From Sulfurospirillaceae bacterium (GTDB lineage: Bacteria > Campylobacterota > Campylobacteria > Campylobacterales > Sulfurospirillaceae), in NCBI GenBank assembly GCA_028692875.1, contig JAQUWL010000006.1, forward strand, positions 16,169 to 80,168: a stretch of DNA of 64,000 nucleotides. The letters are read 5' to 3'. The first letter of the stretch is position 1; each line of letters begins with the position of its first letter. Position numbers and translations under genes: made by a program. Positions 692 to 52,551 of the stretch are shown piece after piece. The notes under the pieces are model-generated. The model was not told where the DNA came from and searched no databases. It worked only from the letters and a program-made list of their open reading frames with translations.

Positions 692-739
692 TATATATCC
701 TTATTTTTTTGGTATTTTCTTATAAAAAGCGTGGTTTGG

Positions 740-835: not shown

Positions 836-901
836 CTTTTTCTCCTTTTTTCACATATAGTCTCTTCGCACAAGGAGTAAACCCCGCCCATAGATGGGGT
901 T

Positions 902-4236: not shown

Positions 4237-4240
4237 TTAT

Positions 4241-5068: not shown

Positions 5069-5074
5069 ATAAAA

Positions 5075-5440: not shown

Positions 5441-5469
5441 TGTCACTCCTTTAAAGTTATTCTTTTGGG

Positions 5470-5482
5470 TTATATTCTAACC
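5470..5482 (-). promoter_or_regulatory. Possible cheY promoter
   Basis: The 75-base gap between hisA and cheY contains, on the minus strand, TTAGAATATAACC, giving overlapping -10-like hexamers TAGAAT and TATAAC about 30-40 bases before the cheY start. This would let cheY and the genes after it be transcribed separately from the glycan genes upstream. Confidence 0.3.
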
Positions 5483-5521
5483 TAATTTGCTTTGAAGTTG
5501 CTTTAAGATAACGATTTGACC

Positions 5522-7751: not shown

Positions 7752-7816
7752 TAAAAATCCTTTTGCTTTTTTGTATTTTAGCTAAATATTAACTCGGCAC
7801 AACAGTAAAATTTTAA

Positions 7817-13453: not shown

Positions 13454-13457
13454 TAAG

Positions 13458-15596: not shown

Positions 15597-16381
15597 TGAG
15601 CATTTTTCCTATAATGTATAAAATTTTTTAAAACCCTTAGCGTATACTTTGCCAAAGAATAGCCTACAAAAAAAAGATACCAGCCTAGCGATATAAAGCC
15701 TTTTTTATAACAAAACGCATAGTTAAAAAGCTCCCCTTTTTCCATCTGCCACATATGAGCAGAAAGTCCACTTTGCCCATAAGCTCGCTTGTGCAACCTT
15801 GCCAGACTTGGCTTTTGAAGAAAATACAAAGGCTCTTTTTGTGAGATTTTGAGCCAAAGATGATAATCCTCAGAGTATCGCTGAGAATCCAAAAATCCAC
15901 CAACCTCATCAAATAGTCTTCGCTCAACAACTGTACACGGCGTAGATGTTCGATTGAAAAATAAAAAATCTCTAAAATTATACTTTTGCAACACAACTTC
16001 CCCATCTTGCGTAAAACTATCAAAAGTATAGCTTGAAGAGATAAATCTTGCCTTTTTTTCGCAAATAAGTGCATATTGCATCTCCAGCTTATCGGCCCTC
16101 CACTCATCATCAGCATCTAAAAACGCCAAAAAATCTCCGCTTGAATGCTTTACGGCTAGATTTCTCGCACTTCCTGCACCTGCGTTTTCTTGATAAATAT
16201 AGCGGTACGACAAAGTAGTGTTTTGGAAAAATGTTTCAACCACTTGCTTTGTTGCATCTGTGCTTCCATCATCAACGATAACTATCTCAAAATCTTTAAA
16301 AGTTTGCGATGCAACCGAAGAGAGTGCAATGTGTAATGTTTTTTCACTGTTGTAGCAAGGAATAATGACCGAAAACATCAT
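15593..16381 (-). CDS. GT2 family glycosyltransferase
   Basis: GT-A fold inverting transferase, 262 residues. FSVIIPCYNSEKTL and VIVDDGSTDAT form the nucleotide site, LAFLDADDEW contains the DxD metal motif. The C-terminal 60 residues are basic and partly hydrophobic, suggesting membrane association. Its place beside pglB resembles PglI/PglJ-type pgl transferases, but the acceptor cannot be read from sequence. ATGA overlaps at both ends. Confidence 0.85.
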   Translation of the reverse strand: MMFSVIIPCYNSEKTLHIALSSVASQTFKDFEIVIVDDGSTDATKQVVETFFQNTTLSYRYIYQENAGAGSARNLAVKHSSGDFLAFLDADDEWRADKLEMQYALICEKKARFISSSYTFDSFTQDGEVVLQKYNFRDFLFFNRTSTPCTVVERRLFDEVGGFLDSQRYSEDYHLWLKISQKEPLYFLQKPSLARLHKRAYGQSGLSAHMWQMEKGELFNYAFCYKKGFISLGWYLFFVGYSLAKYTLRVLKNFIHYRKNAQ

Positions 16382-17151
16382 GATTTATGCTCTGTGAGAT
16401 TTTTCTCTTTGAACGCCAAATAATCATAATATCCTAGTATCTTACGCTCAAGATTCTGTATATCATCGCTGGCTATGATTTCTATTCTTTTCAATCGTCT
16501 CAAATCAACATTTTCTTTTGTATTGAATCCGATGTGACTCGAAGAGGCAATATTGTACCCAATTTTGCCTATCAAATCGATAGTGTCCGCATTGTAAGAG
16601 CCGTGTGGATAGCTTACATGTAACACTTTTTTTCCGATAATATCTTCTAATGTTTGCTTACTCTTGCGAAGTTCATCTTCTTGTTTTTCGTAGCTCAGCA
16701 TTGCCAAGCGTGTATGCGTTGCACCATGCGTACCCAATGTACAAATGGATGATTTGGCAAACAACCGTATATCTTGTGCATTGAGATAATCTTTTTGCCC
16801 AATTGTCCCTGTTGTTATATACAGCGTAAAGGGAATGCCATACATTTGGCAAACTTCTAACGCATAAAGGTTATCCTTATACCCATCATCAAAGGTAATG
16901 CAAAGCGTATTGGTATCTAACTTATCTTCATAGTGTTCATCTAAAGCGATAATCGTATATTGTTCTTTTAAAAATTGCATATGCTCTAAAAAACGCTCTT
17001 TTGTTATCGAGATGCCATAGCTATCATGTGCCAACTTTGAGCCAATGGCGTGATAAATCAAGATACGATTGCCAATTTGCGTAGTATGCTTATGATAGAA
17101 ATTGTAATACAAAAAAGCAAGTTGCTCTTTGAGATACTTTTTAAAACTCAT
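16378..17151 (-). CDS. NodB-type polysaccharide deacetylase
   Basis: Carbohydrate esterase family 4 fold, 257 residues. TFDDGY at 86-91 holds the catalytic Asp and metal Asp; LGTHGATHTRLA supplies the two metal-binding histidines, and VSYPHGSYN is motif 3. No clear signal peptide, so it probably acts on lipid-linked sugars in the cytoplasm. It could remove an acetyl group from a HexNAc, giving a free amine for the acyl- or aminoacyltransferase-like protein encoded next (17148-18116). ATGA overlaps on both sides. Confidence 0.85.
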   Translation of the reverse strand: MSFKKYLKEQLAFLYYNFYHKHTTQIGNRILIYHAIGSKLAHDSYGISITKERFLEHMQFLKEQYTIIALDEHYEDKLDTNTLCITFDDGYKDNLYALEVCQMYGIPFTLYITTGTIGQKDYLNAQDIRLFAKSSICTLGTHGATHTRLAMLSYEKQEDELRKSKQTLEDIIGKKVLHVSYPHGSYNADTIDLIGKIGYNIASSSHIGFNTKENVDLRRLKRIEIIASDDIQNLERKILGYYDYLAFKEKNLTEHKS

Positions 17152-18116
17152 AAATAAAGCCTATTGATAAGAAAACTTATGAGTTTTGAGTTACTTATCT
17201 CCCATTCACCAAGTTTTTCTACGATACTCGCCCTAAGCCCATTTTTAAAAGCAAAAACACCAGGATTTGAAACAGGGTCTATGCCAGACATATCGTACTT
17301 TGTGCAACCTAACGCTTTGGCTTTTTTCAATAGCTCAAACAAAAGGATATGGGATGAGTAGCTTTGTCTTCCCTCGTCAACAGATGCAGCCCAAAAGTCA
17401 ATCGCTTGATTTTCAAAATATAAAAAAGCTCTTATCGCCACAATGTGTCCATCTATCTTTGAGGTTGCCACGACGATTTGCTTACCTAAATGATTTTTGA
17501 TATGTGAAAGTTCTTGTTCCTTAGGCAAAACAACCTCTTTTTTTGTCTCAAATTTACGAAAAATTTTATCGAGTTCAGGTACTGGCACATCTTGCAAAAA
17601 GCAAACTTCAACTTCTTTGTTTTTTTCATAACCTCGTTTGAGATTTTTTCTAAAATTTGAAGAACAACTTTGTGTAAGCTCTTCCATGCTTTGATGCAAA
17701 TCGACATAGATGGTATAGTCGCTATTGATTTTTTTGCAACTTTTTTTCCACCCCGCACTGTGCAAAGCCAAAGAGTCATCAAAATCCAAAACATTGGTAA
17801 AACTGGTTTTGATAAATACGCATTTCACGCCAAAAGTATCTTGAATAAATCGAATTAAGGCTTCTTTCTGAAAACACTCTATCGCTCCTGCGATACTTCC
17901 CACACACCACCCAATAAAGATATTAAATTTTTGCTTATAGGCGATTTGAAAATATCCTATTTTCCCATCTTTATTGGCTTTGATACTAAGCGTCTTCCAG
18001 CCCATCTCATTTTTATATTGACCCAATTCATAAAGCTGATAAGCAGAAAAATTTGATTCTTGTGCAATAGCTTGATTCCAGACATTTGCATCAGTAATCA
18101 GTTGGTAATTTGGCAT
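17148..18116 (-). CDS. FemAB/GNAT-fold aminoacyl- or acyltransferase
   Basis: 322 residues of the FemAB-like superfamily (peptidoglycan-bridge or polysaccharide-decorating GNAT proteins). Visible are a central SSNFRKNLKRGYEK basic segment, HIVAIRAFLYFENQAIDFWAAS in the second GNAT half, and the family-typical DMSGIDPVSNPGVFAFKNG near the C-terminus. Related proteins use aminoacyl-tRNA or acyl-CoA to modify an amino group. Lying directly behind a deacetylase, it may re-acylate the freed amine with an amino acid or other acid. Family assignment is good; substrate unknown. Confidence 0.7.
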   Translation of the reverse strand: MPNYQLITDANVWNQAIAQESNFSAYQLYELGQYKNEMGWKTLSIKANKDGKIGYFQIAYKQKFNIFIGWCVGSIAGAIECFQKEALIRFIQDTFGVKCVFIKTSFTNVLDFDDSLALHSAGWKKSCKKINSDYTIYVDLHQSMEELTQSCSSNFRKNLKRGYEKNKEVEVCFLQDVPVPELDKIFRKFETKKEVVLPKEQELSHIKNHLGKQIVVATSKIDGHIVAIRAFLYFENQAIDFWAASVDEGRQSYSSHILLFELLKKAKALGCTKYDMSGIDPVSNPGVFAFKNGLRASIVEKLGEWEISNSKLISFLINRLYL

Positions 18117-18124
18117 ATTATGAT

Positions 18125-19168
18125 TTACCTCATACTCTCAAATATTTTTTGATACACAATCTCTTTTCCATGTTGTCCGTCAGCATAGTCATACTTTTTA
18201 ATTTCATACAAAGAGGGGTTGTAGGAGCCAAGTATCTGAATATCGTTTCTTTGCGAAAAGTCTTTCACATAATTTTCCACTTTTAAAATCATTCTAAAGG
18301 TATCATGATTGAGTAACAATGGATAAATTTCTGGATGATAAGGATGTAAAAAAAGTACCACTTCTACTTTGTTTTCTTTCAAGTAATGAATAAATTGTTC
18401 AAAAACTTCTGTGTTGGAAAGCATTTTAAATCCAAGAAGTTCATAATACCTATTATCCACTTGTATCTGCTTTTTTTCTCCTGCAAGTACTCTTTCTATC
18501 TCTGCATCTACTACATTAGGATAATAATGTGATCCAAATTTATCCAAAACATAGTCATTGATACCCTCACTATTTTTTGCAATTGAGTATTGACCTTGAT
18601 GATTGAAATTCCTATAAAAAAACAAAACATTCTCTTTGGTATATTCAAAATTTACCAAATTTTTATACTTAACCCCATCAAGTTCTTTTTTTTCTAAACT
18701 CTTCATACCCAATAAATTTCTGAGATTTTCTGCCCCATTTACCCTATTAAATATCCAAGGGTCTATCCCCATAATGATTCTTTTGGGTAAATTTCCTTTG
18801 GTTTTATACTCTTTCACAATATCTATCATATCTCCAAGTACTGCCCCGCTTACAGCATGGTTATAATAGAAAATATCTCCGCTTTTGGGAATAAAGTCAT
18901 AGCGTACCAACATACTTCTTGAAGAACCTAATACTATAGTATCTGGTTCTTGTACAAATTTGTTGATAATGATTTTTTGCAAAAGTTTTTCATCATAATT
19001 CTTTAATCCAACGACACTATTCCCATTAATCATTTCATTGGCCACATCAACCAAGTAGAGTTTTTGGTTGAAAAATCCCGCATAGTCTATCTTGTAATTA
19101 AAAAATACAATCCCTGCTAAAAGAAGCGAAGAAAAAAGAAAAAATTTGACGATTAATATCTTATACAT
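18125..19168 (-). CDS. SGNH-like cell-surface protein, MBOAT partner
   Basis: 347 residues from the ATG at 19168, the first start after the MBOAT stop; an upstream in-frame start would overlap it by 35 bases. One N-terminal membrane anchor (residues about 5-25). TIVLGSSRSMLV has the GxSR nucleophile-type block of SGNH-like O-acetylation proteins, and FLHPYHPEIYPLL may hold the C-terminal histidine. Such proteins are commonly paired with MBOAT acyltransferases to move acetyl from a membrane carrier to a glycan outside. Family assignment is by motif and pairing only. Confidence 0.6.
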   Translation of the reverse strand: MYKILIVKFFLFSSLLLAGIVFFNYKIDYAGFFNQKLYLVDVANEMINGNSVVGLKNYDEKLLQKIIINKFVQEPDTIVLGSSRSMLVRYDFIPKSGDIFYYNHAVSGAVLGDMIDIVKEYKTKGNLPKRIIMGIDPWIFNRVNGAENLRNLLGMKSLEKKELDGVKYKNLVNFEYTKENVLFFYRNFNHQGQYSIAKNSEGINDYVLDKFGSHYYPNVVDAEIERVLAGEKKQIQVDNRYYELLGFKMLSNTEVFEQFIHYLKENKVEVVLFLHPYHPEIYPLLLNHDTFRMILKVENYVKDFSQRNDIQILGSYNPSLYEIKKYDYADGQHGKEIVYQKIFESMR

Positions 19169-19175
19169 TCTCACA

Positions 19176-20627
19176 CTAAAACCTAAAATATAAAAATTCT
19201 GATGGGCCACTAAGCTTAATCAGACAAATTCCAAAACAAAACACCACAAAATATAAATATTTACTAATTTTTGCATCCAATAAACTATTGGTATTTTTAA
19301 ATCCAACAACCAATACAAATGCGACTATCATCATAACGACAACGATTTTGATATCACTTGCAACATTAGCTACTGCACCGCCAAAAGAGATATTGTAAGT
19401 TTCCAAAAAACTAAGTTTATTTCTCAAAACTTCAGGCAATACAATCCCATTCAACCCGACCATACCCTTAATAACTTTGATAGCATCATCCCACTCTTTA
19501 GCTCTAAAAAATACCCAAGCAATATTTACAAAGTTAAAAGTGATAAACCAAACTAAGTATTTGTTCATAGAAAAACCAAATGACTTCCAAACCCTATGAA
19601 TCATGAGTGCTAAACCATGTAATGTACCCCAAAAGATAAAAGTCCACCCAGCACCATGCCAAAGACCACCAAGAATAAAAGTAGCGAGAAGATTGATATA
19701 AGTTCTAAACTCTCCTTGTCTATTTCCTCCTAAAGGAATATAAATATAATCTTTCAAGAACCTTGAGAGTGTCATATGCCACCTTCTCCAAAAATCTTGA
19801 ATATCCAAAGCCTTATAAGGAGAATTGAAATTAATAGGAAGTTTGATGTTAAACATTAAAGAAGCACCAATAGCCATATCTGTATAACCACTAAAATCAA
19901 AATAAAGCTGAAAGGTATAAGAGAGACTTGTTGCCCATGCTTCAAAAAGGCTAAGTGTTGTAGCCGTATCAAACCCTGCAGTTGCCCATACAGAAAAAGT
20001 ATCCGCAATAACTACTTTTTTAAATAAGCCTATTGAAAATATAAAAAGTCCTGTTGCTATATTTTTATAGTTTTTTGTTTTATTACGAATATTAGCAAAT
20101 TGGGGCATCATCTCAGAGTGATGAAGGATTGGTCCTGCTAAGAGGTGAGGAAAGTAAGTTACAAAGAGGGCATAGCGTACAAAGTTATACTCTTTTACTT
20201 TATCTTTATAGCAATCTACCAAATAGGCAATTTGGGTAAAAGTAAAGAAGCTAATGCCTAGAGGTAAGATAATATGGGGAAGCGGTACATTTGCTCCAAA
20301 GATACCATTAAAGTTATCCAGAAGAAAATCTGTATATTTGAAGTATCCTAGAAGGGATAAATTTGAAATGACAGCAAATACAAGCAATGTTTTTTTCTTG
20401 ATTGCATCATGGACTTCAACAAATGATTTACCTATAACAAAGTTAAACAACATCGATGTTAATATCAGTGGTAAATATACAGGATTCCACCAACCGTAAA
20501 ACACCAACGATGCAAAAACCAAAAAAGCAATACTTGCTGTTGTTAATCTTTTATTATTCAGGTAAAAATAGACAAAAAACGTTATCGGTAAAAATACAAA
20601 TATAAACTCGTAACTGCTAAATAGCAT
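19176..20627 (-). CDS. MBOAT family O-acyltransferase (AlgI-like)
   Basis: Polytopic membrane acyltransferase, 483 residues and about eleven helices, moving acyl (usually acetyl) groups across the membrane for glycan O-acetylation. FDFSGYTDMAIG and QDFWRRWHMTLSRFLKDYIYIPLGGNR are AlgI/DltB signatures; the catalytic histidine is in GGLWHGAGWTF. The ATG at 20627 (MLFSSYEF, GGAT upstream) is preferred over a GTG two codons earlier. Followed at 7 bases by its likely partner. No TACATGTA motif occurs in this gene or either neighbour, unlike the genes to the left. Confidence 0.92.
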   Translation of the reverse strand: MLFSSYEFIFVFLPITFFVYFYLNNKRLTTASIAFLVFASLVFYGWWNPVYLPLILTSMLFNFVIGKSFVEVHDAIKKKTLLVFAVISNLSLLGYFKYTDFLLDNFNGIFGANVPLPHIILPLGISFFTFTQIAYLVDCYKDKVKEYNFVRYALFVTYFPHLLAGPILHHSEMMPQFANIRNKTKNYKNIATGLFIFSIGLFKKVVIADTFSVWATAGFDTATTLSLFEAWATSLSYTFQLYFDFSGYTDMAIGASLMFNIKLPINFNSPYKALDIQDFWRRWHMTLSRFLKDYIYIPLGGNRQGEFRTYINLLATFILGGLWHGAGWTFIFWGTLHGLALMIHRVWKSFGFSMNKYLVWFITFNFVNIAWVFFRAKEWDDAIKVIKGMVGLNGIVLPEVLRNKLSFLETYNISFGGAVANVASDIKIVVVMMIVAFVLVVGFKNTNSLLDAKISKYLYFVVFCFGICLIKLSGPSEFLYFRF

Positions 20628-32455: not shown

Positions 32456-33501
32456 TAAAACACATCTCCATATTCACTATTTGCTCGCTCATACTCTTCC
32501 ATCCGACCAATATCTAGCCAATATTCTCGGATAGGAAATGAGAGTGTATTTTTACCTATGCCTATTAACTTTTCAAACAATATGGGCATATCAAAAAAAG
32601 TATCTTTCTCAATATACTCTATAGCTTTGGGATTTAACATATAAATACCAGCACTTACAAAAAATTTCTGGACAGGTTTTTCTTTAATAGATACTATTTT
32701 ACCATCTTGCATATTAACAACGCCATAAGGCACTTGAAAATCATATTCTCTTACGCACATCGTTGCCATAGAGTTGTTTGCGAGGTGGTAGTGATGCAAA
32801 TGCTCAAAATTTACATTGGTTAGCAAATCACCGTTCATGACAAAAAATGGCTCATTTGGCACCTCTTTTAAAAGGCTAAGTGCCCCTGCTGTGCCCATTC
32901 TTTTTTCTTCTAAAACATACTCTATATTGACACCAAAAGAACTTCCATCTCCAAAATAATCTTGAATAACATGGGATTTATAATTAACACACATCACAAT
33001 ATTGACAAATCCATACTCCGCAAACTTCTCGACAATGGTCTGAAGTATGGGTTTATTACCAACCATTAGCATGGGTTTAGGAGTATTTTCTGTTAAGGGT
33101 CGCAGTCTAGTTCCTAGCCCACCTACCATTAAAACAACTTTATTGGGTTTTACGCTTGAGCTTACAAGCTCCTCTATCTCTTTTATGCCAACAACTCTAT
33201 TTTCTTCATCCACTATTGGTATTTGATGCAATTTTTTAGCAAGTGCTTTTTTTAAAATCTCTTCTTTGGTATCGCTTATCTTGGCTACTGTTGGATTTTT
33301 AAAGATGATAGGCTCGATAGCACTATCCAAGCTCAAACCCCTCAAAAGTCCTCGCCTGATATCCCCATCGGTCAATGTGCCAACAAGTCTATCTTCTTCA
33401 TCTACAACGATAGCTATCTGCATGGCACCCTTGTCGATAACATCTAAAGCCTCTCTGATGGTCGAAGATGGCTTTAGTTTTATATTTCCTATATTTTTCA
33501 T
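32455..33501 (-). CDS. ptmE: Glucosamine-1-P guanylyltransferase PtmE with CBS pair
   Basis: 348 residues. Residues about 1-115 are two CBS domains (IAIVVDEEDRLVGTLTDGDIRRG and a second DEENRVVGIKEIEEL unit), fused to a nucleotidyltransferase from about 118 (VVLMVGGLGTRLRPLTENTPKP; metal Asp in FFVMNGDLL). This CBS-NTase fusion is the PtmE type that commits sugar to the GDP-linked legionaminic acid route. The start overlaps the stop of the intervening ORF6N gene (ATGA) rather than a pathway gene. Confidence 0.9.
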   Translation of the reverse strand: MKNIGNIKLKPSSTIREALDVIDKGAMQIAIVVDEEDRLVGTLTDGDIRRGLLRGLSLDSAIEPIIFKNPTVAKISDTKEEILKKALAKKLHQIPIVDEENRVVGIKEIEELVSSSVKPNKVVLMVGGLGTRLRPLTENTPKPMLMVGNKPILQTIVEKFAEYGFVNIVMCVNYKSHVIQDYFGDGSSFGVNIEYVLEEKRMGTAGALSLLKEVPNEPFFVMNGDLLTNVNFEHLHHYHLANNSMATMCVREYDFQVPYGVVNMQDGKIVSIKEKPVQKFFVSAGIYMLNPKAIEYIEKDTFFDMPILFEKLIGIGKNTLSFPIREYWLDIGRMEEYERANSEYGDVF

Positions 33502-34070
33502 TTTTTAATCTTTTTTATACTTCTGCTAACTTTGGCAAAACCAAGATTGAACTCAAATTTCGTAGTAGTTTCTACTACTTCACTATCTTCATCATCAGCC
33601 AATATATCAGATTCTATCTCTATAATCTCCTCAAGGATTTTATTTGATTTTTTCGCCAGTTCTTTTTGTTTTTCTTTATTTTCTGTTTTCATGATAGCAT
33701 TTATATTTCTTGATAGCTCTTTTACTTTTGCAAAGGTTTCGATGATATTTAAAGTAGTTTGAATAGCTTTTTCGCTAGTAAGAATTGTTGCTAACATATA
33801 TAAGCCTTTTTCGGTAAAAACCTTTGGGTTTACAGTAGAATGTTTGAGTTTATCGAACCGGTCAAAATTTTTGACCAGTTCTGTTTTTTCATCTTTTGTT
33901 AGCTCTATCACATAACCATTAGGAAATTTACTAGGATTGTTGGATACGGCTTGATTGACTTCTTTTGTAGCAACATTATATAACTCCGCTATATCTTTAT
34001 CTACTATTACAAATTGGTCATGATATTGAATGAGTTTGCTTTCTATTGTTTCAAATTTAATTATACTCAT
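33498..34070 (-). CDS. ORF6N-domain DNA-binding protein
   Basis: 190 residues from the ATG at 34070 (GAGG six bases upstream). QFVIVDKDIAELYNVATKEVNQAVSNN is the ORF6N/KilA-type N-terminal DNA-binding domain, and NPKVFTEKGLYMLATILTSEKA its second half; the C-terminal third is charged helix. Phage antirepressors and scattered chromosomal genes of unknown role carry this domain. It stands alone inside the legionaminic acid operon, between the PIG-L gene and ptmE, with no pathway function I can see. The junctions carry similar TTTCATTTTAA-like sequences (34080-34090 and 33496-33508), hinting at insertion. Confidence 0.8.
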   Translation of the reverse strand: MSIIKFETIESKLIQYHDQFVIVDKDIAELYNVATKEVNQAVSNNPSKFPNGYVIELTKDEKTELVKNFDRFDKLKHSTVNPKVFTEKGLYMLATILTSEKAIQTTLNIIETFAKVKELSRNINAIMKTENKEKQKELAKKSNKILEEIIEIESDILADDEDSEVVETTTKFEFNLGFAKVSRSIKKIKK

Positions 34071-34086
34071 GTTTGCCTCTTTCATT

Positions 34087-39356: not shown

Positions 39357-40361
39357 TTATATCAATTCATCTTTTTGATAATTTTTATCCGCAATCATTC
39401 CTATTATATTATCCCATAACATTGGACTTATACCATTTCCAGCCCTTTTAATTGCAAGATTATTTTCAGCAAAGACTTCACCTCGTTGAATTGTACAACT
39501 AGCTACGATGGCTTTTCTGGCAATAGATTTATTTTTACTTTCGCTTGGAGTTGGTTTTTTAATGCCATCGCCTAAGGCTCTCTCAATATTTCGTATTGCT
39601 TTTACCATCGCAACCAACTCTTCTGGCTCCAATGAGGCCTTATGATCAGGTCCTTGCATATTTTTATCTAATGTAAAATGTTTTTCAATCACACACGCTC
39701 CCATAGCTACAGCGGCTATGGGTATTTCGATACCTTGCGTATGGTCAGAATAACCTACTTTAAAACCAAAAACATTATGTATGGTTTGCATCGCTTTTAA
39801 ATTCACTTCATCCATAGGGCATGGGTACTCCGTGGTTGCATGTAATACAGTTATATTCTCTTTATGTGTACCTACTTGCACCAACACTTCAAGTGCATCT
39901 TCAACCTCTTTTAAAGTTGCCATACCAGTTGACAAAATGACCTTCTTTTGTAGTTTTCCTATGTGTCTAAGATAAGGTAGATTGGTGATTTCACCACTAG
40001 GAATTTTAAAGATTTCAAGTCCTAAATTATCCAATAAGTCAATGCTATCATGGTCAAAAGGTGTTGACAAAAACAAGATACTTTTTTCTTTACAATAATC
40101 CATCAAAACATGGTGCGCTTCTTCATTAAGCTCTAGCTTTTTTATCATATCAAATTGAGATTCACTCTTATCGGTTGTTTGTTTTTGATAGTCAGCTTTT
40201 TGGGCACTCTTTGAAACCAGTTTATCGGCTTTAAATGTTTGAAATTTGACTGCATCAGCCCCAGCGACACATGCCACATCTATAAGCTTTTTAGCTAATT
40301 CCAAATTGCCATTGTGATTGACTCCAGCTTCGGCAATGATAAAAACTTTACCTGATTTCAC
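39357..40361 (-). CDS. legI: Legionaminic/N-acetylneuraminic acid synthase (NeuB family)
   Basis: Condenses phosphoenolpyruvate with a six-carbon HexNAc to a nine-carbon nonulosonic acid. 334 residues: IIAEAGVNHNGNLELAKKLIDVA, VKFQTFKADKLV, GYSDHTQGIEIPIAAVAMGACVIEKHFTLD with metal histidines, then the SAF antifreeze-like domain (about 278-334, SIARKAIVASCTIQRGE). GTG start overlapping the nuclease stop (GTGA). With legG, legF, legB, legC and legH in the window, the nonulosonate is most likely legionaminic acid. Confidence 0.93.
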   Translation of the reverse strand: MKSGKVFIIAEAGVNHNGNLELAKKLIDVACVAGADAVKFQTFKADKLVSKSAQKADYQKQTTDKSESQFDMIKKLELNEEAHHVLMDYCKEKSILFLSTPFDHDSIDLLDNLGLEIFKIPSGEITNLPYLRHIGKLQKKVILSTGMATLKEVEDALEVLVQVGTHKENITVLHATTEYPCPMDEVNLKAMQTIHNVFGFKVGYSDHTQGIEIPIAAVAMGACVIEKHFTLDKNMQGPDHKASLEPEELVAMVKAIRNIERALGDGIKKPTPSESKNKSIARKAIVASCTIQRGEVFAENNLAIKRAGNGISPMLWDNIIGMIADKNYQKDELI

Positions 40362-41467
40362 GCTTGTTCCTTGCTTTGTCTGTAGTTTATTTTATCTACT
40401 GCTGACAATTCTTCCAAATCTTCTTTTACTAAATCTTCTAGTTCTTTTGTTGTTGGCAATACGACCTTATACTTTGAAACAAAAAGATTTTCATCAAGCC
40501 CTGCGGTGGCATATTCTACTTTGACGCTGTTTTTTTCAGTACAAAGTATGATTCCTATAGGTGGGTTATCGCCTTGCATTGAAATTTCGTTTTTGTAGTA
40601 GTTAAGATAAAAATTCATCTGCCCGACATCCGCATAACTAAAAGCTCTAACTTTAAGGTCAACCAAAACATGACATTTAAGCACTCTGTGATAAAAAACT
40701 AAATCTATTCTATCATGTTCATTATCTATAGAAATTCTTTTTTGTCTTGCCTCAAAACAAAATCCAGTGCCTAGTTCTAGCAAGAAATCCTCTATATGAT
40801 TTAATAAAGCACTTTCTAAATCATTTTCGCTATAGCTCTCCTTATTTTCAAGTCCCGTAAACTCCAGTATATAAGGCTCCTTGACAATTAAGGCTGGATT
40901 GAAAAGTTCTTTTTTATTTTCTAGTGATTGGAGTAAACTTTTTTTATCTACCGACAATCCAACTCTTTCATACAGAAGTGATTCCACTTGTCTTTTTAGC
41001 TCCCTTACGCTCCAGTTTCCTTTGATGGTTTCTACTTCATAAAATGTTCTCTTGAGTTCATTATCTATTTTTATAAGCTCAATAAAATGGGTAAAACTGC
41101 AAGTTCTTAAAAGCTTCTCAGTAGGTACATTCAAAGATTGGTCAGTCACTGATTGACTTATTTTATAAGGTATCTTGAATTGGTCGCTCACTGATTGACT
41201 TATTTGTGGATAAGTGAGATAAAATTGCCTCATAAGCTTTAAAGCCGTAGTTGACATCCCTTTGACATGCGATAACTTTTGAGCCATATTCTCTATAAGT
41301 TTCGCTCCATAAATGGCTCTATCACTCCCATTTTGTTCATACTCTACAATATAATACCCGATAATAAAATTTCGCAAAGTAAGATTTATACTCAAGCTTT
41401 GCAAAGCTTTGGTTTGAAATGTTTGATGTACGGTGTTTATGGTTGAGATAAGGCTTGGGAGTGTCAT
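40358..41467 (-). CDS. YhcG-like PDDEXK nuclease (DUF1016)
   Basis: 369 residues. N-terminal helical domain (about 10-150) characteristic of DUF1016; C-terminal PD-(D/E)xK nuclease with IDLVFYHRVLKCHVLVDLKVRAF and the following QMNFYLNYY. Family members are thought to act in DNA repair, defence or mobile-element biology. Isolated between legH and legI; its GTGA overlap with legI and the ATGA overlap with the small ORF upstream make it fully embedded in the operon. It is a different subtype from the second copy at 50080-51114. The upstream legH looks truncated here. Confidence 0.85.
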   Translation of the reverse strand: MTLPSLISTINTVHQTFQTKALQSLSINLTLRNFIIGYYIVEYEQNGSDRAIYGAKLIENMAQKLSHVKGMSTTALKLMRQFYLTYPQISQSVSDQFKIPYKISQSVTDQSLNVPTEKLLRTCSFTHFIELIKIDNELKRTFYEVETIKGNWSVRELKRQVESLLYERVGLSVDKKSLLQSLENKKELFNPALIVKEPYILEFTGLENKESYSENDLESALLNHIEDFLLELGTGFCFEARQKRISIDNEHDRIDLVFYHRVLKCHVLVDLKVRAFSYADVGQMNFYLNYYKNEISMQGDNPPIGIILCTEKNSVKVEYATAGLDENLFVSKYKVVLPTTKELEDLVKEDLEELSAVDKINYRQSKEQA

Positions 41468-41565
41468 TTTAACTTTCCTGACTCATCCAGCATTACCTGA
41501 ATACCTCTTGTGGTATAAATTTTATCTTGAATCGTTTGGTTATTGGCTATGGTTAAATTATTCAT
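41464..41565 (-). pseudogene. Remnant of an ORF6N-domain gene
   Basis: A 33-codon ORF between legH and the nuclease. Its first 27 residues (MNNLTIANNQTIQ, then DKIYTTRGIQVMLD) match the beginning of ORF6N-domain proteins, in which VMLD is normally followed by the D-L-A-E-L-Y helix; here the reading breaks off into ESGKLK and stops. The ATG overlaps the legH stop (ATGA) and the stop overlaps the nuclease ATG. It looks like the stub of an earlier insertion overwritten by the nuclease. Confidence 0.6.
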
Positions 41566-42137: not shown

Positions 42138-43273
42138 ATTCTCACCGAACTTGGGATATTAACAACACGTTCTTCTAGCCAAGAAGCATTGGATAAATCT
42201 CCACACTGACATGCTTTAAACATCTCTAACTTATTCATTAATGTCCATATGGGTCGGCTCATCACACCGTTGCTATTGGTGTATTCTAAAAATATATCTC
42301 TTTGTTCTTTATTCTCCAAGATAATAGCATTGAGCCAGTAATTAGACTTTGAATCTTTAGGCTCTTTAACATAGCTTATCTTTGAGTCTTTAAAAAATGC
42401 TTCATAGCGTTTTGCCAAATCTCTTTTGTTCTCTAAAAAGTTATTGAGTTGTTCAAGTTGTGCCACCAAAAGAGCCGCATTGAGATTTGGCAGACGGTAG
42501 TTATAGCCTATCTCATCATGCACAAACAACCATTTATGAGGTACTTTTGCAGTTGTTGTGATATGTTTTGCTTTTTTTGCCAAAACCTCATCATCGGTCA
42601 CAACAACACCGCCACCACCGCTGGTGATGATTTTATTGCCATTGAAACTAAATGCACCTACCCGACCAAAAGTGCCCGTATGTCGTCCTTTGTAGTAACT
42701 CCCCAGCGACTCGGCAGCATCTTCGATAAGAGCGATATGCCACTCATCACAAATGGCTTTTATCTCATCTATGCGACATGGATGCCCAAAAGTATGCATC
42801 GGGACACACGCTTTAATGACTTTTTTCGTTATTTTATTGATACACTGATTATCTTTAATGTGTGCATTTTCATTTAAAAATGTACGCAAAGCTTCTGGAG
42901 ATAAACCCAAAGTATCTCTATCCACATCTACAAAAATAGGCTTCGCCCCACAATACGTTATAGCGTTACATGTTGCGATAAAAGTCAAAGGCTGGGTGAT
43001 AACTTCATCGCTCTCACCTACTCCCATCAAAACTAAGCTTACATGTAAAGCCGCCGTTCCATTCACGGTTGCTATAGCATACTTGCTACCTACATGTAAA
43101 GCAAATTCTTTTTCAAATCTATCGACATAAGCCCCCACGCTTGAAACAAATGTGGAATCTATACAGTCATTGAGATACTTTTTTTCATTGCCTATAAAGC
43201 GTGGTTCGTGCAAGGAGATAAACTTTTGAGCTACAAAAGTGTCTTGAATAAATTTTACTATTTTTGCATACAT
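42134..43273 (-). CDS. legC: LegC-type sugar aminotransferase
   Basis: Transfers an amino group to C4 of the keto sugar made by LegB. 379 residues; FISLHEPRFIGNEKKYLNDC and STFVSSVGAYVDRFE are the LegC-family N-terminus, IEDAAESLGSYYKGRHTGTFG gives the PLP Asp, AFSFNGNKIITSGGGGVVV the Schiff-base lysine. Its ATG directly follows the KilA-N stop (TAGATG), and that junction is one copy of a 15-bp direct repeat whose other copy ends legB, so legC originally abutted legB. Confidence 0.92.
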   Translation of the reverse strand: MYAKIVKFIQDTFVAQKFISLHEPRFIGNEKKYLNDCIDSTFVSSVGAYVDRFEKEFALHVGSKYAIATVNGTAALHVSLVLMGVGESDEVITQPLTFIATCNAITYCGAKPIFVDVDRDTLGLSPEALRTFLNENAHIKDNQCINKITKKVIKACVPMHTFGHPCRIDEIKAICDEWHIALIEDAAESLGSYYKGRHTGTFGRVGAFSFNGNKIITSGGGGVVVTDDEVLAKKAKHITTTAKVPHKWLFVHDEIGYNYRLPNLNAALLVAQLEQLNNFLENKRDLAKRYEAFFKDSKISYVKEPKDSKSNYWLNAIILENKEQRDIFLEYTNSNGVMSRPIWTLMNKLEMFKACQCGDLSNASWLEERVVNIPSSVRI

Positions 43274-43285
43274 CTACATCTTCCC
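43271..43285. repeat. 15-bp direct repeat, copy 1 (KilA-N/legC junction)
   Basis: CATCTACATCTTCCC on the plus strand; on the coding strand GGGAAGATGTAGATG, i.e. Gly-Lys-Met-stop of the KilA-N gene plus the ATG of legC. Identical to 44099-44113. The two copies are 828 bases apart, exactly one gene. Confidence 0.9.
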
Positions 43286-44101
43286 TAACTTTTTAATCGA
43301 TGAATTATTTATCAAAGATTTCATTTGAGATATCGCCATTTCATTGAGTGCTATAAGTCTATCAGATTGAGCAATACCTCTTTTTATAAGTTCGGCATTG
43401 ATACTCTCCATATTTGAAAGAACTATAAGCTGTTCTACGCTTGTATAATCTCTAATATTACCCTCTTTGTTCGTATTTGCTTCTCTCCATTCTTTTGCAG
43501 TCATTCCAAAAAGTGCTACGTTTAGCACATCCGCTTCGTTAGCATAAATAAAACCATCTTTTTGTTTTGATAATACACTCATTGGGATGAGATGTTCTTT
43601 TATAGCATCCGTATGTATTTTATAGTTTATCTTCGAAAGACTTCTGCTTAAATTCCACTCTAAAGATTTATTTTGTATCTCATCTTCTTTGAGTCTTTGA
43701 AACTCTTTGATAAGAAAAAGTTTAAACTCGGCACTTATCCAACTAGCAAATTCAAAAGCTATATCTTTATGAGCATAGGTTCCACCATACCGTCCTGCTT
43801 TACTAATAATACCTATAGCATTTGTATTTTCTATCCATTTAGAAGGAGACATCGTAAAACTATTTAATCCAGCTTCATTTTTAAACCCGTCGAATTCGAC
43901 CCCTTTAAAATTAGGATTGTTTATTTGCTCCCAAAGACCCAAAAACTCTATCGTGTTTTTACTTCTAAGCCAGTTTTTGACAACATCTTTTGGTTCATCT
44001 GTATTTTTAGCTCTTGCTATATCTGTTAAAGATATAAAATCAATTTTTTCATGCCGACGAATTTCGATACTTGTATCTTGAACTATAATTTTATTTTTCA
44101 T
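43274..44101 (-). CDS. KilA-N domain protein
   Basis: 275 residues. IEIRRHEKIDFISLTDIARAKN, VVKNWLRSKNTIEFLGLWEQINNPNFKGVEF and SKAGRYGGTYAHKDIAFEFASWISAEFKLFLIKEFQRLKEDE form a complete KilA-N DNA-binding domain like that of phage antirepressors; the C-terminal half carries helices of the kind seen in chromosomal KilA-N proteins. It lies exactly between legB and legC: the unit from ATG to stop is 828 bases and is bounded by an exact 15-bp direct repeat, each copy holding a G-K-M-stop end plus ATG. It therefore looks inserted without disturbing either pathway gene. Function unknown. Confidence 0.88.
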   Translation of the reverse strand: MKNKIIVQDTSIEIRRHEKIDFISLTDIARAKNTDEPKDVVKNWLRSKNTIEFLGLWEQINNPNFKGVEFDGFKNEAGLNSFTMSPSKWIENTNAIGIISKAGRYGGTYAHKDIAFEFASWISAEFKLFLIKEFQRLKEDEIQNKSLEWNLSRSLSKINYKIHTDAIKEHLIPMSVLSKQKDGFIYANEADVLNVALFGMTAKEWREANTNKEGNIRDYTSVEQLIVLSNMESINAELIKRGIAQSDRLIALNEMAISQMKSLINNSSIKKLGKM

Positions 44102-44113
44102 CTACATCTTCCC
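44099..44113. repeat. 15-bp direct repeat, copy 2 (legB/KilA-N junction)
   Basis: Same CATCTACATCTTCCC as at 43271-43285. Here it encodes the last residues of LegB (GKM), its TAG stop and the ATG of the KilA-N gene. YLDGKM is probably the native end of LegB, so this copy is probably the original and the other the duplicate. Confidence 0.9.
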
Positions 44114-48269: not shown

Positions 48270-49682
48270 CTATTTTACTTCGCTTTCCAATTTCCAATAT
48301 CCACTTTTATCACTTCCAACTCGCACTATAAGTTTATACTCTTTTAACTTTTGAATACTTCTCATAATCGTTGTTCTATTTTTACCAACTTCTTTCACAA
48401 TCTTAGTATAAGAGATATTTGGATTGGTCCGTATCGCATTTAATATTTTTTCTTGTGTTTCATTTAGAGGTGCATTTAGAGGTGCATTTAGAGGTGCATT
48501 TTCTTCTCTCTCTTGCAATTTAACTTCCACTCGAAAAACTTCACCTTCTACCAAAATAGGATCGCTTCCACCATAGGCTTTTGCATACTTGTAAAGATTT
48601 TTCACTCCGCTTCCAAGCTCATCCGCAAAGCCTATCTCGCGAAAAACCTTTGCTATGGTTGGATTTTTTGGATAAGGTGTAAAATTGGTTGGTTTTAGCT
48701 CCCCATAACTATGTGGGATATTTGCATTTTCAAAAACTACATTATGTCTACCAATAACCATTTTTGCCACATATGCACTGCTATATTCTCGATGTATCAA
48801 GCTATTTGACACGGCTTCTCGAAAGATTTTATCTCTTAGACTTATGCGCATATCTCCCTCAAGATAAAAAGGGTCATTTAGATGTTTTTTTACAAATTCC
48901 ATCATCTTATAATAACTGTCAATCAGATTAGTCGTTACTATCTCTCTATCATCATATCTATCAAGATTCATTTTACGAAGTATCAGGTCTGTTTTATGAT
49001 GAGGCAGAGCATTGGTTATCGTTTCATCTTTACCAAAAAGCAAAATAGCCCCAAGGGTAAACCCTTCTTTGTTTGTCGTTTTATCGACCTTGTAAAGTCC
49101 TGAACTTTTTAATAATTCAAAATCACTCAATTCTTCCCACGGATGAGTATCAACACGTCTGTTTGATGCTACGATGCGGATTCGCTTTATAAGGTCTAAA
49201 TCAAAATCATCCATTGTTACATAAGGAAAAACTTTGTCTTCTGTATAAATGTCTTGCTTAAAAAGGTAAAGCTTAGCAATATTTGCATTTTGTCCAGTGA
49301 TATTTATATCGCTATCATTGTTTCTATCAAATATCTTTCCATTTAGAGTGCACACAGACTTGCTTTGTGGTACTTTGATGTATAAAATCTTTTTGTTTTT
49401 TATTTCTATCGTTTCTATAGTAAGATACAAAGGTGGACTAAATTTTTGGGGATTGTTTATGGCTGTCACAAACTCTTTTTTTATGTGTTCAATGGCATCT
49501 TCGTCTACACCCACGATGTTTCCATCATCTTTTACACCTAAAAATATATGACCTCCAGCTCGATTTGAAAATGCACATACGGTTTCATAAACATCTTTGC
49601 TGAGCTGATTTTTTGATTCTTTAAACTCAACTTTAAAGCTCTCGCCTTGCATAATAAGCTTTAGTATATGCTCTAGTTGCAT
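48270..49682 (-). CDS. AlbA_2-type ATP-binding transcriptional regulator
   Basis: 470 residues. N-terminal AlbA_2 DNA-binding domain (FKVEFKESKNQLSKDVYETVCAFSNRAGG, HIFLGVKDDGNIVGV), a GHKL-like ATPase region (LRDKIFREAVSNSLIHREYSS, GSGVKNLYKYAKAYGG), a linker of repeated NAPL units, and a C-terminal winged helix (NISYTKIVKEVGKNRTTIMRSIQKLKEYKLIVRVG). Proteins of this kind are scattered singletons in many bacteria; targets rarely known. It overlaps the MarR-type gene by 10 bases and may be co-transcribed with it. The linker repeat is perfect at DNA level and could vary in copy number. Confidence 0.85.
   Translation of the reverse strand: MQLEHILKLIMQGESFKVEFKESKNQLSKDVYETVCAFSNRAGGHIFLGVKDDGNIVGVDEDAIEHIKKEFVTAINNPQKFSPPLYLTIETIEIKNKKILYIKVPQSKSVCTLNGKIFDRNNDSDINITGQNANIAKLYLFKQDIYTEDKVFPYVTMDDFDLDLIKRIRIVASNRRVDTHPWEELSDFELLKSSGLYKVDKTTNKEGFTLGAILLFGKDETITNALPHHKTDLILRKMNLDRYDDREIVTTNLIDSYYKMMEFVKKHLNDPFYLEGDMRISLRDKIFREAVSNSLIHREYSSAYVAKMVIGRHNVVFENANIPHSYGELKPTNFTPYPKNPTIAKVFREIGFADELGSGVKNLYKYAKAYGGSDPILVEGEVFRVEVKLQEREENAPLNAPLNAPLNETQEKILNAIRTNPNISYTKIVKEVGKNRTTIMRSIQKLKEYKLIVRVGSDKSGYWKLESEVK
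48461..48496. repeat. Perfect 12-bp tandem repeat, three copies
   Basis: CATTTAGAGGTG repeated at 48461, 48473 and 48485, followed by a partial fourth unit. It encodes (Asn-Ala-Pro-Leu)x3 in the linker before the winged helix of the AlbA_2 protein. The unit is a multiple of three, so copy-number change keeps the frame. Confidence 0.95.
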
Positions 49683-49996
49683 GATTTCATCACTTCAAGT
49701 TCTCGCTGCAATTCTTCATACTCTTGTTTCTTTCGCTCAATAAACTTTTCTGTTAAAGCTATTTTTTCTTTAAAACCTTGTTCTGTTAAAAGATATCGAT
49801 AGGCTTTTTTATTGGTACTATGAGAGAAATTTTCGATTTTTATGAGTCCTTTTTGGATAAGTGCTTTTAGGATGTAATTCACTTTTCCTACACTGTACCC
49901 GATTGAACTTGCAATATCTCTTTGGGTGGTATGCTCCCCAGCAACTCTCAGGATGGCTAAAGTATCGGTATTGTTTATTGTATCTTGTGTGTTCAT
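49673..49996 (-). CDS. EPS-associated MarR-type transcriptional regulator
   Basis: 107 residues. Winged helix TQRDIASSIGYSVGKVNYILKALIQKGLIKIENFSHSTNKKAYRYLLTEQGFKEK then a coiled coil LTEKFIERKKQEYEELQRELEVM; this arrangement is the small MarR-type family found at the head of exopolysaccharide/O-antigen operons. It heads the leftward run of pglK, leg and later genes. Two GTTCA-N5-TGAA(C/T) inverted repeats lie in front and over its start codon, suggesting autoregulation. TATAAA ends about 11 bases before the ATG and no ribosome site is visible, so the mRNA may be leaderless. Confidence 0.85.
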   Translation of the reverse strand: MNTQDTINNTDTLAILRVAGEHTTQRDIASSIGYSVGKVNYILKALIQKGLIKIENFSHSTNKKAYRYLLTEQGFKEKIALTEKFIERKKQEYEELQRELEVMKSCN

Positions 49997-50005
49997 GTGT
50001 TGAAT
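49991..50005. promoter_or_regulatory. Operator-like inverted repeat over the MarR gene start
   Basis: GTTCATGTGTTGAAT: GTTCA, five bases, TGAAT; it overlaps the start codon of the regulator gene and is 37 bases from the perfect copy at 50028-50042. Confidence 0.45.
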
Positions 50006-50015
50006 TTTATAGTCT

Positions 50016-50042
50016 TGAAGCTTTGATGTTCATAAATTGAAC
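50016..50042. repeat. 27-bp direct repeat, copy 1
   Basis: Begins TGAAGC and ends with the palindrome GTTCATAAATTGAAC. The other copy at 51516-51542 differs only at the sixth base (A for C). Copies are exactly 1,500 bases apart and enclose the YhcG/123-residue gene pair. Confidence 0.92.
50028..50042. promoter_or_regulatory. Operator-like inverted repeat GTTCA-N5-TGAAC
   Basis: GTTCATAAATTGAAC, a perfect five-base inverted repeat with five-base spacer, lying just upstream of a TATAAA box for the MarR-type gene. An identical copy lies at 51528-51542 in front of the 123-residue gene. Probable binding site for the MarR-type protein; inferred from position and symmetry. Confidence 0.55.
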
Positions 50043-50079
50043 ATATAGAATTTTTTCTATCAATTGCTTTCATTTTGCA

Positions 50080-51114
50080 CTACTTTTCAAATAAATTTTC
50101 CAATCTTTGGCTTATTTCACTTGGCGTTGGCAACAAATCTTTAAATTCGCTTGGTAAAAATTCTGTAAGTTTATAAGTAGCAACTCCTATTGGTTGATTG
50201 CTCTCTTTGAGTGCGTATTCCACTGTTGTTCGTTTTTTTTCTTTACAAATGATGATGCCGATGGATGGATTTTCATCAGGTAGTTTAATAGTGTCATTTA
50301 ACACTGAGAGATAAAAGTTCATTTTTCCTGCGTATTCTGGTTTGAACTTTCCTATTTTTAGCTCAATGGCTATTAGAGATTTGAGCCTTCTGTGATACAA
50401 AAGTATATCTATAAAATACTCTTCATCATCTACTTCTAGTTTGTATTGATTTCCCAAAAAGGCAAAGTCAGAACCCATCTGAGCTAAAAACTCTCTTATT
50501 TTATTTATAAGTCCAATTTCCAACTGATGTTCGCTATACTCTTCACCTAATTCTAGAAAGTCAAAATTATATTCATCTTTTACAGCAAGTGAGGCTTGAT
50601 GTTTGTATTTTTCTACTATTGTAATATCAAAATTTGTTTGATTTAAAAGAAATTTTTCATAAGATTTGTTATCGATATGATTGTCCAGCACTCTAGATGT
50701 CCAGCCAAACTTTATGACCATTTTGATGTAAAATTCTCTTTCTAATTCATCTTTGGCTTTTTGGAAAATGACCACATTGTGTGTCCAACCAATTTGTGCA
50801 GTCAATGCCTGCAGTTTTGTGTTGTCTCTGTATTCAATATAGAAAGTTCGCATATTCCAAAGATTTCTTTCACTAAAACCTTTCATTCCTACAAACTCTT
50901 TTTGAAGTTCTTCTGAGAGGTTTTTTACTACAGATTGTCCCCAGCCAAACTGCTCTTGTTTTTCTACAATATTTTTACCAATATCCCAATAAAGATTTAT
51001 AAGCTCTTTGTTGACTGCTTTTAGGGCTTCATATTGAGATGAAAGTATTTTAGATTTTATTTCTTTGACAAAGGTAGTGAAGTGTTGGTCTGTAGGCGAA
51101 AGTTCTTTTTTCAT
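50080..51114 (-). CDS. YhcG-family PDDEXK nuclease (DUF1016)
   Basis: 344 residues, the standard layout: N-terminal helical DUF1016 domain (LINLYWDIGKNIVEKQEQFGWGQSVVKNLSEEL, GFSERNLWNMRTFY, IGWTHNVVIFQKAKDELEREFYI) and C-terminal nuclease (DEEYFIDILLYHRRLKSLIAIELKIG, KMNFYLSVLND) with the D ... ExK catalytic set. Coupled by ATGA to the small gene upstream; the pair is bracketed by 27-bp direct repeats between the epimerase and the MarR-type gene, so it looks like an inserted cassette. Role in defence, recombination or insertion itself unknown. Confidence 0.88.
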   Translation of the reverse strand: MKKELSPTDQHFTTFVKEIKSKILSSQYEALKAVNKELINLYWDIGKNIVEKQEQFGWGQSVVKNLSEELQKEFVGMKGFSERNLWNMRTFYIEYRDNTKLQALTAQIGWTHNVVIFQKAKDELEREFYIKMVIKFGWTSRVLDNHIDNKSYEKFLLNQTNFDITIVEKYKHQASLAVKDEYNFDFLELGEEYSEHQLEIGLINKIREFLAQMGSDFAFLGNQYKLEVDDEEYFIDILLYHRRLKSLIAIELKIGKFKPEYAGKMNFYLSVLNDTIKLPDENPSIGIIICKEKKRTTVEYALKESNQPIGVATYKLTEFLPSEFKDLLPTPSEISQRLENLFEK

Positions 51115-51482
51115 TTTAGCAACTCTATTATTTTATACCACTGTTCTTTATCTATATCGTGACCAATACTATTATTTTCTATAGCTTCTTCTATCTCTGT
51201 TTTCATTTTATTTTTTGTATTTTGTGATAATATTTGCCAATTGGTCAATATGTTTTCGACAACTTCTGAAACTATATAGGTTTGTCTACCTAAAGCATAT
51301 CTAAAAGATGCAAGTAGTGTTAACTCAGATACTTTTATCGCAGATTTTTGTAATAAATCTTCTAAAATATCATGGCACTCTTGCAGCTGTTCATCTGTGA
51401 CATTATCACTCATACTTATTGCTTGAGCTAAAATATCAAACTCACATAAATTTTGTTCTCTATTATCATCTATAGTTTTCAT
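51111..51482 (-). CDS. Small protein of unknown function paired with YhcG nuclease
   Basis: 123 residues, acidic, predicted helical. SAIKVSELTLLASFRYALGRQTYIVSEVVENILTNWQILSQ is the most distinctive block and resembles short proteins I associate with phage or plasmid genomes, without an assignable function. Ends ATGA-coupled to the nuclease, so the two probably act or are controlled together. Inside the 1,500-base repeat-bounded unit, with an operator-like site 46-60 bases upstream of its start. Confidence 0.7.
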   Translation of the reverse strand: MKTIDDNREQNLCEFDILAQAISMSDNVTDEQLQECHDILEDLLQKSAIKVSELTLLASFRYALGRQTYIVSEVVENILTNWQILSQNTKNKMKTEIEEAIENNSIGHDIDKEQWYKIIELLK

Positions 51483-51515
51483 TACTTATTATCGTTCCTT
51501 TGATACCTTTTTCAA

Positions 51516-51542
51516 TGAAGATTTGATGTTCATAAATTGAAC
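51516..51542. repeat. 27-bp direct repeat, copy 2
   Basis: Second copy of the repeat at 50016-50042 (26 of 27 bases identical), including GTTCATAAATTGAAC at 51528-51542. It lies 8-34 bases after the epimerase stop and upstream of the 123-residue gene. Confidence 0.92.
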
Positions 51543-51549
51543 TTTCATT

Positions 51550-52551
51550 TTAAACATTAAAAAACTCTCTATACCAATCCACAAATTTATCTATTCCCTC
51601 TTGGATTGGTGTTGAGGGTTTATACCCCAAATCCTCGACCAAATCGCTCACATCCGCATACGTTGAGGGCACATCTCCTGCTTGAAGTGGCAAAAAGTTT
51701 TTTTCTATCGTTTTTCCGAGCTTCTTTTCGATGGCTTCAATAAAATCCATCAATTTTACTGGATTATTATTGCCGATATTGTATATCTTATAGCTCTTTG
51801 CTGGACTGTCTATTACCCTTACTACACCCTCGATTATGTCGTCAATATAAGTAAAATCTCTTAGCATTTCGCCATTATTGAACACGTCAATTGCTTTTCC
51901 CTCAATAGCCGCTTTGGTAAACAAAAACAACGCCATATCTGGTCTGCCCCACGGTCCATAAACTGTAAAAAAGCGAAGTCCTGTTGTCTGCAAACCAAAA
52001 AGATGACTATACGTATGTGCCATCAGCTCATTGGATTTTTTGCTCGCTGCGTACAAACTGATAGGGTGATCAACATTGTCGCTTGTGCTAAAAGGAAGTT
52101 TTTCATTGGAGCCATAGACCGATGAGCTGCTCGCATAGCAAAGGTTTTTTACCCCAAAATGCCTGCAGCACTCTAAAATATTCATAAAACCAACGATATT
52201 GCTCTGGATATAAGCATCTGGGTTGGTTAGCGAGTAACGCACCCCTGCTTGTGCTGCGAGATTGCATACAGCATCAAATTTCTCAGTGGCAAAAAGAGCC
52301 TCTAGTCCAGCTTTATCCTCAAGATTGAGTTTGATAAAACGATAGTTTACATGTAAGCTGGATTGAATGAGTTTATTGAAAACAATAGACTCTTGAGCTA
52401 TACCTGCACGCTCCAATCTTCCGAATTTAACACTTTGGTCATAGTAGTCATTGATGTTATCAAGTCCAATAATTTCATCTCCTCTAGCCAATAGCTTTAA
52501 CGCTAAATGACTTCCAATAAATCCTGCTGTTCCCGTGACTAAAATCTTCAT
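51550..52551 (-). CDS. UDP-glucuronate 4-epimerase
   Basis: 333 residues, extended [108 protein letters not shown]-like block (here KAAIEGK) are typical of UDP-GlcA 4-epimerases making UDP-GalA. No gene for UDP-glucose dehydrogenase proper is seen in the window. One TACATGTA site. Confidence 0.9.

What the first reader, a model, noticed from the sequence alone, without database searches (positions are those of the whole stretch)
50016..51542. 1,500-bp YhcG-nuclease cassette between 27-bp direct repeats
Seen directly: 26 of 27 bases are identical at 50016-50042 and 51516-51542, exactly 1,500 apart, enclosing a two-gene unit (123-residue protein plus YhcG nuclease) between an epimerase gene and a MarR-type regulator. 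Removing the unit and one repeat would leave a normal intergenic promoter region. Inference: the pair is a mobile or repeatedly acquired cassette that duplicated the promoter/operator of the operon it entered, so it may also be under that operon's control.
Basis: partly seen in the sequence, partly recalled or inferred. Interest (0 to 1): 0.72.

Follow-up and report, generated by a model that had tools for sequence, protein, structure and literature searches.

The report
Duplicated regulator site flanking nuclease insertion
The 27-base repeat is a second copy of the likely binding site of the neighbouring polysaccharide-gene regulator, left beside a phage-defence-type nuclease gene pair that was spliced into a sugar-coat gene cluster, one of several such single-gene intruders found in these clusters.

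Summary
In detail: 26/27 identical bases, exactly 1,500 apart, the only such pair at offsets up to 20 kb in the window. The core is a dyad, GTTCATAAATTGAAC; GTTCA-N5-TGAAC occurs only at these two places in the 1.94-Mb genome. It is very likely the operator of the adjacent TIGR04176 (MarR_EPS) regulator: of 2,816 palindromes tested upstream of 45 regulator loci, TTCA-N5-TGAA ranks first (32/45; about 1% in random windows), and first again in two disjoint subsets. The repeat carries only the distal operator and -35 region; the -10 box and a proximal operator stay with marR. The closest relative has one copy and no cassette, but a different upstream gene, so the empty site is partial. YhcG relatives recur in polysaccharide clusters without the 123-residue partner. 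Accessory genes there (YhcG, KilA-N, ORF6N/RhuM, AlbA_2) are flanked by direct repeats more often than other genes (6/26 versus 1/234); in several cases the repeat is the duplicated 5' end of the next gene. Best model: homology-anchored illegitimate integration with marR as anchor left the second operator behind. Control of the cassette by MarR_EPS is plausible but unproven. New variant of known insertion patterns, plus an operator prediction.

The parts
51516..51542 (-). cassette-side copy of the 27-bp repeat (dyad 51528-51542), 7 bp after the epimerase stop codon
50016..50042 (-). marR-side copy of the 27-bp repeat (dyad 50028-50042): predicted distal operator of MarR_EPS, overlapping the -35-like hexamer
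49991..50005 (-). predicted proximal operator ATTCAACACATGAAC, overlapping the marR start codon; not part of the repeat
50004..50011 (-). -10-like box TATAAAAT of the marR promoter; outside the repeat
49673..49996 (-). TIGR04176 MarR_EPS regulator, 107 aa
   Evidence: 114.9 bits, cut-off 88
50080..51114 (-). YhcG nuclease (DUF1016_N + YhcG_C), PADLOC candidate PDC-S02, 344 aa; FID...ELK of the PD-(D/E)XK motif present
51111..51482 (-). 123-aa protein; residues 55-120 match phage family phrog_11947; no relative in 399 genomes of the order
51550..52551 (-). NAD-dependent epimerase gene (upstream boundary of the insertion)
48270..49682 (-). AlbA_2 gene lying between marR and a nucleotide-sugar dehydrogenase gene that follow each other directly in L012 and L013
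43274..44101 (-). KilA-N gene (PDC-S22) inserted between two genes that adjoin in L005; flanked by a 17-nt direct repeat (43269-43285, 44097-44113)
40358..41467 (-). second YhcG gene, inserted between two genes that overlap in L005; 86% DNA match to L094 confined to the ORF
41464..41565 (-). 33-codon ORF6N stub (first ~28 and last ~5 codons of an ORF6N gene, middle deleted)
33498..34085 (-). ORF6N gene (PDC-S05); homology to L100 begins at the internal ATG 34070

Best explanation
The repeat is the distal operator of the MarR_EPS regulator. A DNA segment carrying the 123-aa gene and yhcG entered the polysaccharide cluster just upstream of marR, probably by homology-facilitated illegitimate recombination: incoming DNA in which the pair lay upstream of a marR homologue was anchored by homology in marR on one side and joined by a non-homologous or very short-homology end just after the resident marR distal operator on the other. 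This left one operator before the inserted pair and one before the intact marR. Shown: the two copies, the operator motif across relatives, a single-copy relative without the pair, and the same architecture (5' fragment of gene X, accessory ORF, intact gene X) at other accessory ORFs. Inferred: the recombination route, the donor, binding by MarR_EPS. The pair is probably transcribed by read-through from the epimerase operon, perhaps modulated by the operator copy; YhcG probably acts as a DNA nuclease in phage defence.
For: TTCA-N5-TGAA is the top palindrome of 2,816 upstream of 45 MarR_EPS loci (32/45), top again in two disjoint subsets (7/15, 24/29), 1.3% of random windows; it usually follows a -10-like box. 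Only two GTTCA-N5-TGAAC in the genome. L005/L029: one distal plus one proximal operator with the same spacing, no cassette. Parallel cases: L093 57-76-bp epimerase 5' ends around yhcG and kilA; L094 62-nt epimerase 5' copies around YhcG; L096 57-bp epimerase 5' copy before AlbA_2; L101 regulator-plus-operator block duplicated at 96% among ORF6N/RhuM genes. Direct repeats of 17 nt or more flank 6/26 accessory ORFs versus 1/234 others, Fisher p = 4e-6. DNA homology between relatives at different sites stops near the ORF ends.
Against: No relative with this exact epimerase directly followed by marR was found, so the strict empty site is missing. The window repeat is short (27 bp) and in non-coding DNA, unlike the coding 5' ends of the parallel cases. 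No donor with this pair upstream of marR was seen. Several YhcG insertions (L087, L088a, L091, L095) show no flanking repeat. The accessory gene set for the Fisher test was drawn up after some cases had been seen, and clusters were chosen because they hold regulator or YhcG genes. The motif is absent upstream of the five most distant homologues (L021-L023, L025, L026) and of some within the order.
Confidence: 0.6

Rival explanations
1. Insertion with target duplication driven by the nuclease itself (homing-like): YhcG or a relative cuts near the 5' end of a resident gene and repair inserts the ORF with a duplicated target.
For: Inserted genes encode nuclease or DNA-binding families; several have target duplications; insertion with long target duplication is known for restriction-modification genes of Helicobacter pylori.
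Against: KilA-N, ORF6N and AlbA_2 genes are not known nucleases yet show the same pattern; targets differ in sequence; many YhcG sites lack repeats.
Confidence: 0.15
2. The operator copy was selected as a regulatory device: duplication of the site brought the nuclease pair under MarR_EPS, coupling defence to coat production.
For: The dyad is perfect in both copies; a promoter-like TTGAAA-16-GATAAT (10/12) lies directly after the cassette copy.
Against: The -10 box and the proximal operator were not duplicated; no other YhcG examined has the operator in front; that promoter-like site would start transcription at the ATG.
Confidence: 0.15
3. A conventional mobile element whose insertion made a 27-bp target-site duplication.
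For: Direct repeats bound the unit exactly.
Against: No transposase or integrase gene in the unit; no terminal inverted repeats; single copy in the genome; YhcG relatives have other neighbours and ends.
Confidence: 0.05

Closest known systems
Insertion with long target duplication (Nobusato et al. 2000, restriction-modification genes in Helicobacter pylori; cited in PMC1643837 and PMC4978471)
   Same: Nuclease-type genes inserted between direct repeats of the target; same bacterial phylum judged by named relatives.
   Different: Here the repeat is a 27-bp operator, no same-species empty allele could be compared, and non-nuclease ORFs take part.
Homology-facilitated illegitimate recombination (Acinetobacter, Streptococcus, Pseudomonas; proposed for Vibrio T6SS arrays, PMC5361080)
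   Same: Explains one anchored end, one illegitimate end, and a displaced fragment of the resident gene.
   Different: Inferred from architecture only; no donor or transformation experiment.
TIGR04176 MarR_EPS regulators
   Same: The flanking regulator scores above the family cut-off.
   Different: No paper in the searched library names the model; the operator is predicted here.
YhcG/DUF1016 PD-(D/E)XK proteins (PF06250/PF17761; PADLOC PDC-S02)
   Same: Both domains full length, catalytic-type motif present.
   Different: A 2005 neighbourhood survey saw no consistent association (PMC1189080); here several close relatives lie in polysaccharide clusters.

Membership tests
TIGR04176 MarR_EPS | score above the curated cut-off of 88 bits | tested here: met
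   114.9 bits
TIGR04176 MarR_EPS | lies in a polysaccharide gene cluster | tested here: met
   neighbouring epimerase, dehydrogenase, rml-type and glycosyltransferase-type genes
YhcG family | DUF1016_N and YhcG_C domains, full length | tested here: met
   155 and 204 bits
YhcG family | E-D-E(I/L/V)K nuclease motif (PMC1189080) | tested here: met
   FID...ELK read in the translation; not aligned residue by residue to a structure
YhcG family | nuclease activity | not testable with these tools
   no solved relative found by sequence
Insertion with target duplication | direct repeat of target sequence at both ends | tested here: met
   27 bp, 26/27; it matches the marR operator of relatives
Insertion with target duplication | empty allele with one copy in an otherwise identical context | tested here: inconclusive
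   L005/L029 has one copy and no insert, but a different upstream gene
Homology-facilitated illegitimate recombination | one homologous end, one illegitimate end | tested here: inconclusive
   similarity of the two copies ends abruptly on both sides of the 27 bp; no donor available
Transposable element | transposase or recombinase gene | tested here: not met
Transposable element | terminal inverted repeats or several copies | tested here: not met
Two-gene defence cassette | conserved partnership of the 123-aa gene with yhcG | tested here: not met
   no relative of the 123-aa protein in 399 genomes, while close YhcG relatives occur

The most novel reading that the evidence does not exclude
YhcG, KilA-N, ORF6N and AlbA_2 genes form a guild of single-ORF passengers that spread through surface-polysaccharide operons by inserting at start codons with duplication of the next gene's 5' end, keeping the operon translatable and sometimes capturing the operon's own operator.
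Probability: 0.2. Interest if true: 0.72.

Novelty: new variant of a known kind. Interest (0 to 1): 0.5.

Why it matters
It offers a testable operator for an apparently uncharacterised regulator family that stands at polysaccharide clusters, and a footprint (duplicated 5' ends beside accessory ORFs) by which insertion of defence-type genes into these clusters can be recognised and dated. If the operator copy is functional, coat synthesis and a candidate defence nuclease would share one regulator.

Tried and rejected
Transposon with target-site duplication: rejected (no transposase, no terminal inverted repeats, single copy). Genome-wide plain regulator site: rejected for GTTCA-N5-TGAAC (two sites); the looser TTCA-N5-TGAA gives 73 sites against 46 for the reversed control, too many to interpret. 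Conserved two-gene cassette: rejected. Searches for the 123-aa protein gave only weak C-terminal phage and plasmid matches and no viral-contig relatives; the phage neighbourhood holds no annotated YhcG. Its single-sequence structure model is poor (pLDDT 61, all helical), so no fold search was run. Same-genus comparison was impossible: only the window's own genome is held for the genus. Literature searches for MarR_EPS operators and for YhcG genes in polysaccharide clusters gave nothing relevant.

Full report
Observation. No other 27-mer pair in the window reaches 26 matches at any offset from 28 to 20,000, so this is not chance. On the coding (minus) strand each copy reads GTTCAATTTATGAACATCAAA(G/T)CTTCA. 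The first 15 bases are a perfect dyad, GTTCA-N5-TGAAC, a pattern present only at these two places in the 1,935,516-base genome.

What the repeat is. The gene after the marR-side copy is a TIGR04176 MarR_EPS regulator (114.9 bits, cut-off 88). I collected relatives from named genomes (closest: Sulfurospirillaceae, Sulfuricurvum, Sulfurovum, Sulfurospirillum, Sulfurimonas) and from 399 genomes of the order. After removing identical upstream sequences, 45 loci remained, the window's included. I tested all 256 four-base half-sites with spacers 0-10 in the 150 bases upstream plus 30 bases into each gene: TTCA-N5-TGAA is first, present in 32 of 45; the next, TCAA-N3 and ATTC-N7, are overlapping descriptions of it. 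Split into two disjoint sets it is first in both (7/15 and 24/29), against 1.3% of random windows. It often lies directly after a -10-like box, the classical position for a repressor site (20 of 37 dyads by a loose pattern; contexts). Binding has not been shown; the operator assignment is inference from conservation.

In the window the marR promoter has two such dyads: a distal one (in the repeat, overlapping the -35-like hexamer) and a proximal one at 49991-50005, overlapping the start codon, directly after TATAAAAT. L005/L029 has both with the same spacing. Only the distal one plus 12 bases stands before the 123-aa gene. A promoter-like TTGAAA-16-GATAAT directly follows the cassette copy, but it would place the transcript start at the ATG; read-through from the epimerase gene seems likelier.

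Empty site. L005 (L029 carries the same arrangement) has one distal operator directly before its marR and no cassette. Its upstream gene is an fcl-type epimerase whose stop codon lies within the operator, so the upstream side differs from the window. This supports insertion without being a strict empty allele. The same genome gives better empty sites for two other genes of the window: KilA-N (43274-44101) interrupts a gene junction that is contiguous in L005 and is flanked by a 17-nt repeat, and the second YhcG (40358-41467) interrupts a junction where the two genes overlap in L005. Between that YhcG and its upstream neighbour is a 33-codon stub, MNNLTIANNQTIQDKIYTTRGIQVMLDESGKLK: the beginning and end of an ORF6N gene with its middle deleted. 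AlbA_2 likewise lies between marR and a dehydrogenase gene that follow each other in L012 and L013.

YhcG elsewhere. In 70 of 399 genomes some YhcG relative is present; those at 69-78% identity include genes between PseF and PseG (L087), between gmd and fcl (L088, on a contig with a MarR_EPS gene), before a UDP-glucose dehydrogenase (L091) and beside a nucleotide-sugar gene (L076); L096 holds a remnant of the first 18 and last 41 residues in a polysaccharide cluster. Others lie elsewhere: L089, L090 and L092, and more distant ones beside type I restriction genes. None has a relative of the 123-aa protein before it. DNA similarity between window genes and relatives at other sites begins at or near the start codon and ends near the stop: second YhcG against L094 (86%), KilA-N against L094, ORF6N against L100, YhcG against L096.

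Footprints. In L093 the 5' end of an epimerase gene (57-76 bp) occurs before yhcG, between yhcG and kilA, and after kilA; L094 has 62-nt epimerase 5' copies on both sides of a YhcG; L096 has a 57-bp copy of the downstream epimerase start before AlbA_2; L101 has the regulator-plus-operator block duplicated at 96% among ORF6N and RhuM genes. The copies differ by 5-20%, as expected if one came from the resident and one from a donor gene. Direct repeats of at least 17 nt flank 6 of 26 accessory ORFs and 1 of 234 others (Fisher p = 4e-6). Caveat: the accessory list was fixed after some cases had been seen, and the loci were not drawn at random. The window pair with its 27-bp repeat is not among the six, because each ORF was tested singly.

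Mechanism. The pattern 'fragment of gene X, accessory ORF, intact gene X' is what homology-facilitated illegitimate recombination would leave: homology in gene X anchors one end, the other end joins by chance within the resident gene's 5' region. In the window, gene X is marR and the fragment is its distal operator. The process is known from transformable bacteria and has been proposed for Vibrio effector arrays. 'Insertion with long target duplication', described for restriction-modification genes of Helicobacter pylori, is the nearest named pattern. I cannot separate the two without a donor or same-species alleles.

Function. YhcG has both family domains and the FID...ELK motif expected of PD-(D/E)XK nucleases, and PADLOC lists it as a defence candidate, PDC-S02; activity is unproven. 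The 123-aa protein resembles a phage family of unknown function over residues 55-120.

Verdict. A real, non-random feature: the predicted operator of an uncharacterised regulator family, duplicated by insertion of an accessory nuclease pair, within a recurrent but so far loosely quantified pattern.

Noticed in passing
window 43269-43285 and 44097-44113: 17-nt direct repeat flanking the KilA-N gene; the junction is contiguous in L005.
   Followed up: yes
window 41464-41565: 33-codon ORF6N stub consisting of the two ends of the gene, directly before the second YhcG.
   Followed up: yes
L096 6842-7043: YhcG remnant of the first 18 and last 41 residues in a polysaccharide cluster: internal deletion of an accessory ORF.
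   Followed up: partly
L090 477-2788: Two YhcG genes with the same translation in tandem (spacing 1271) with repeated flanks; a real duplication or an assembly artefact.
   Followed up: no
L101 734-10098: Three MarR_EPS genes, each with its own dyad, plus a marR 5' fragment among ORF6N and RhuM genes in one cluster.
   Followed up: partly
L098 6595-7686: A third YhcG of the window's genome lies between type I restriction methylase and specificity-type genes.
   Followed up: no
L021 3434-3506 and L022 3418-3490: Pairs of GTTCA-N5-TGAAC dyads 58 bp apart, about 1.5 kb upstream of gammaproteobacterial MarR_EPS homologues.
   Followed up: no
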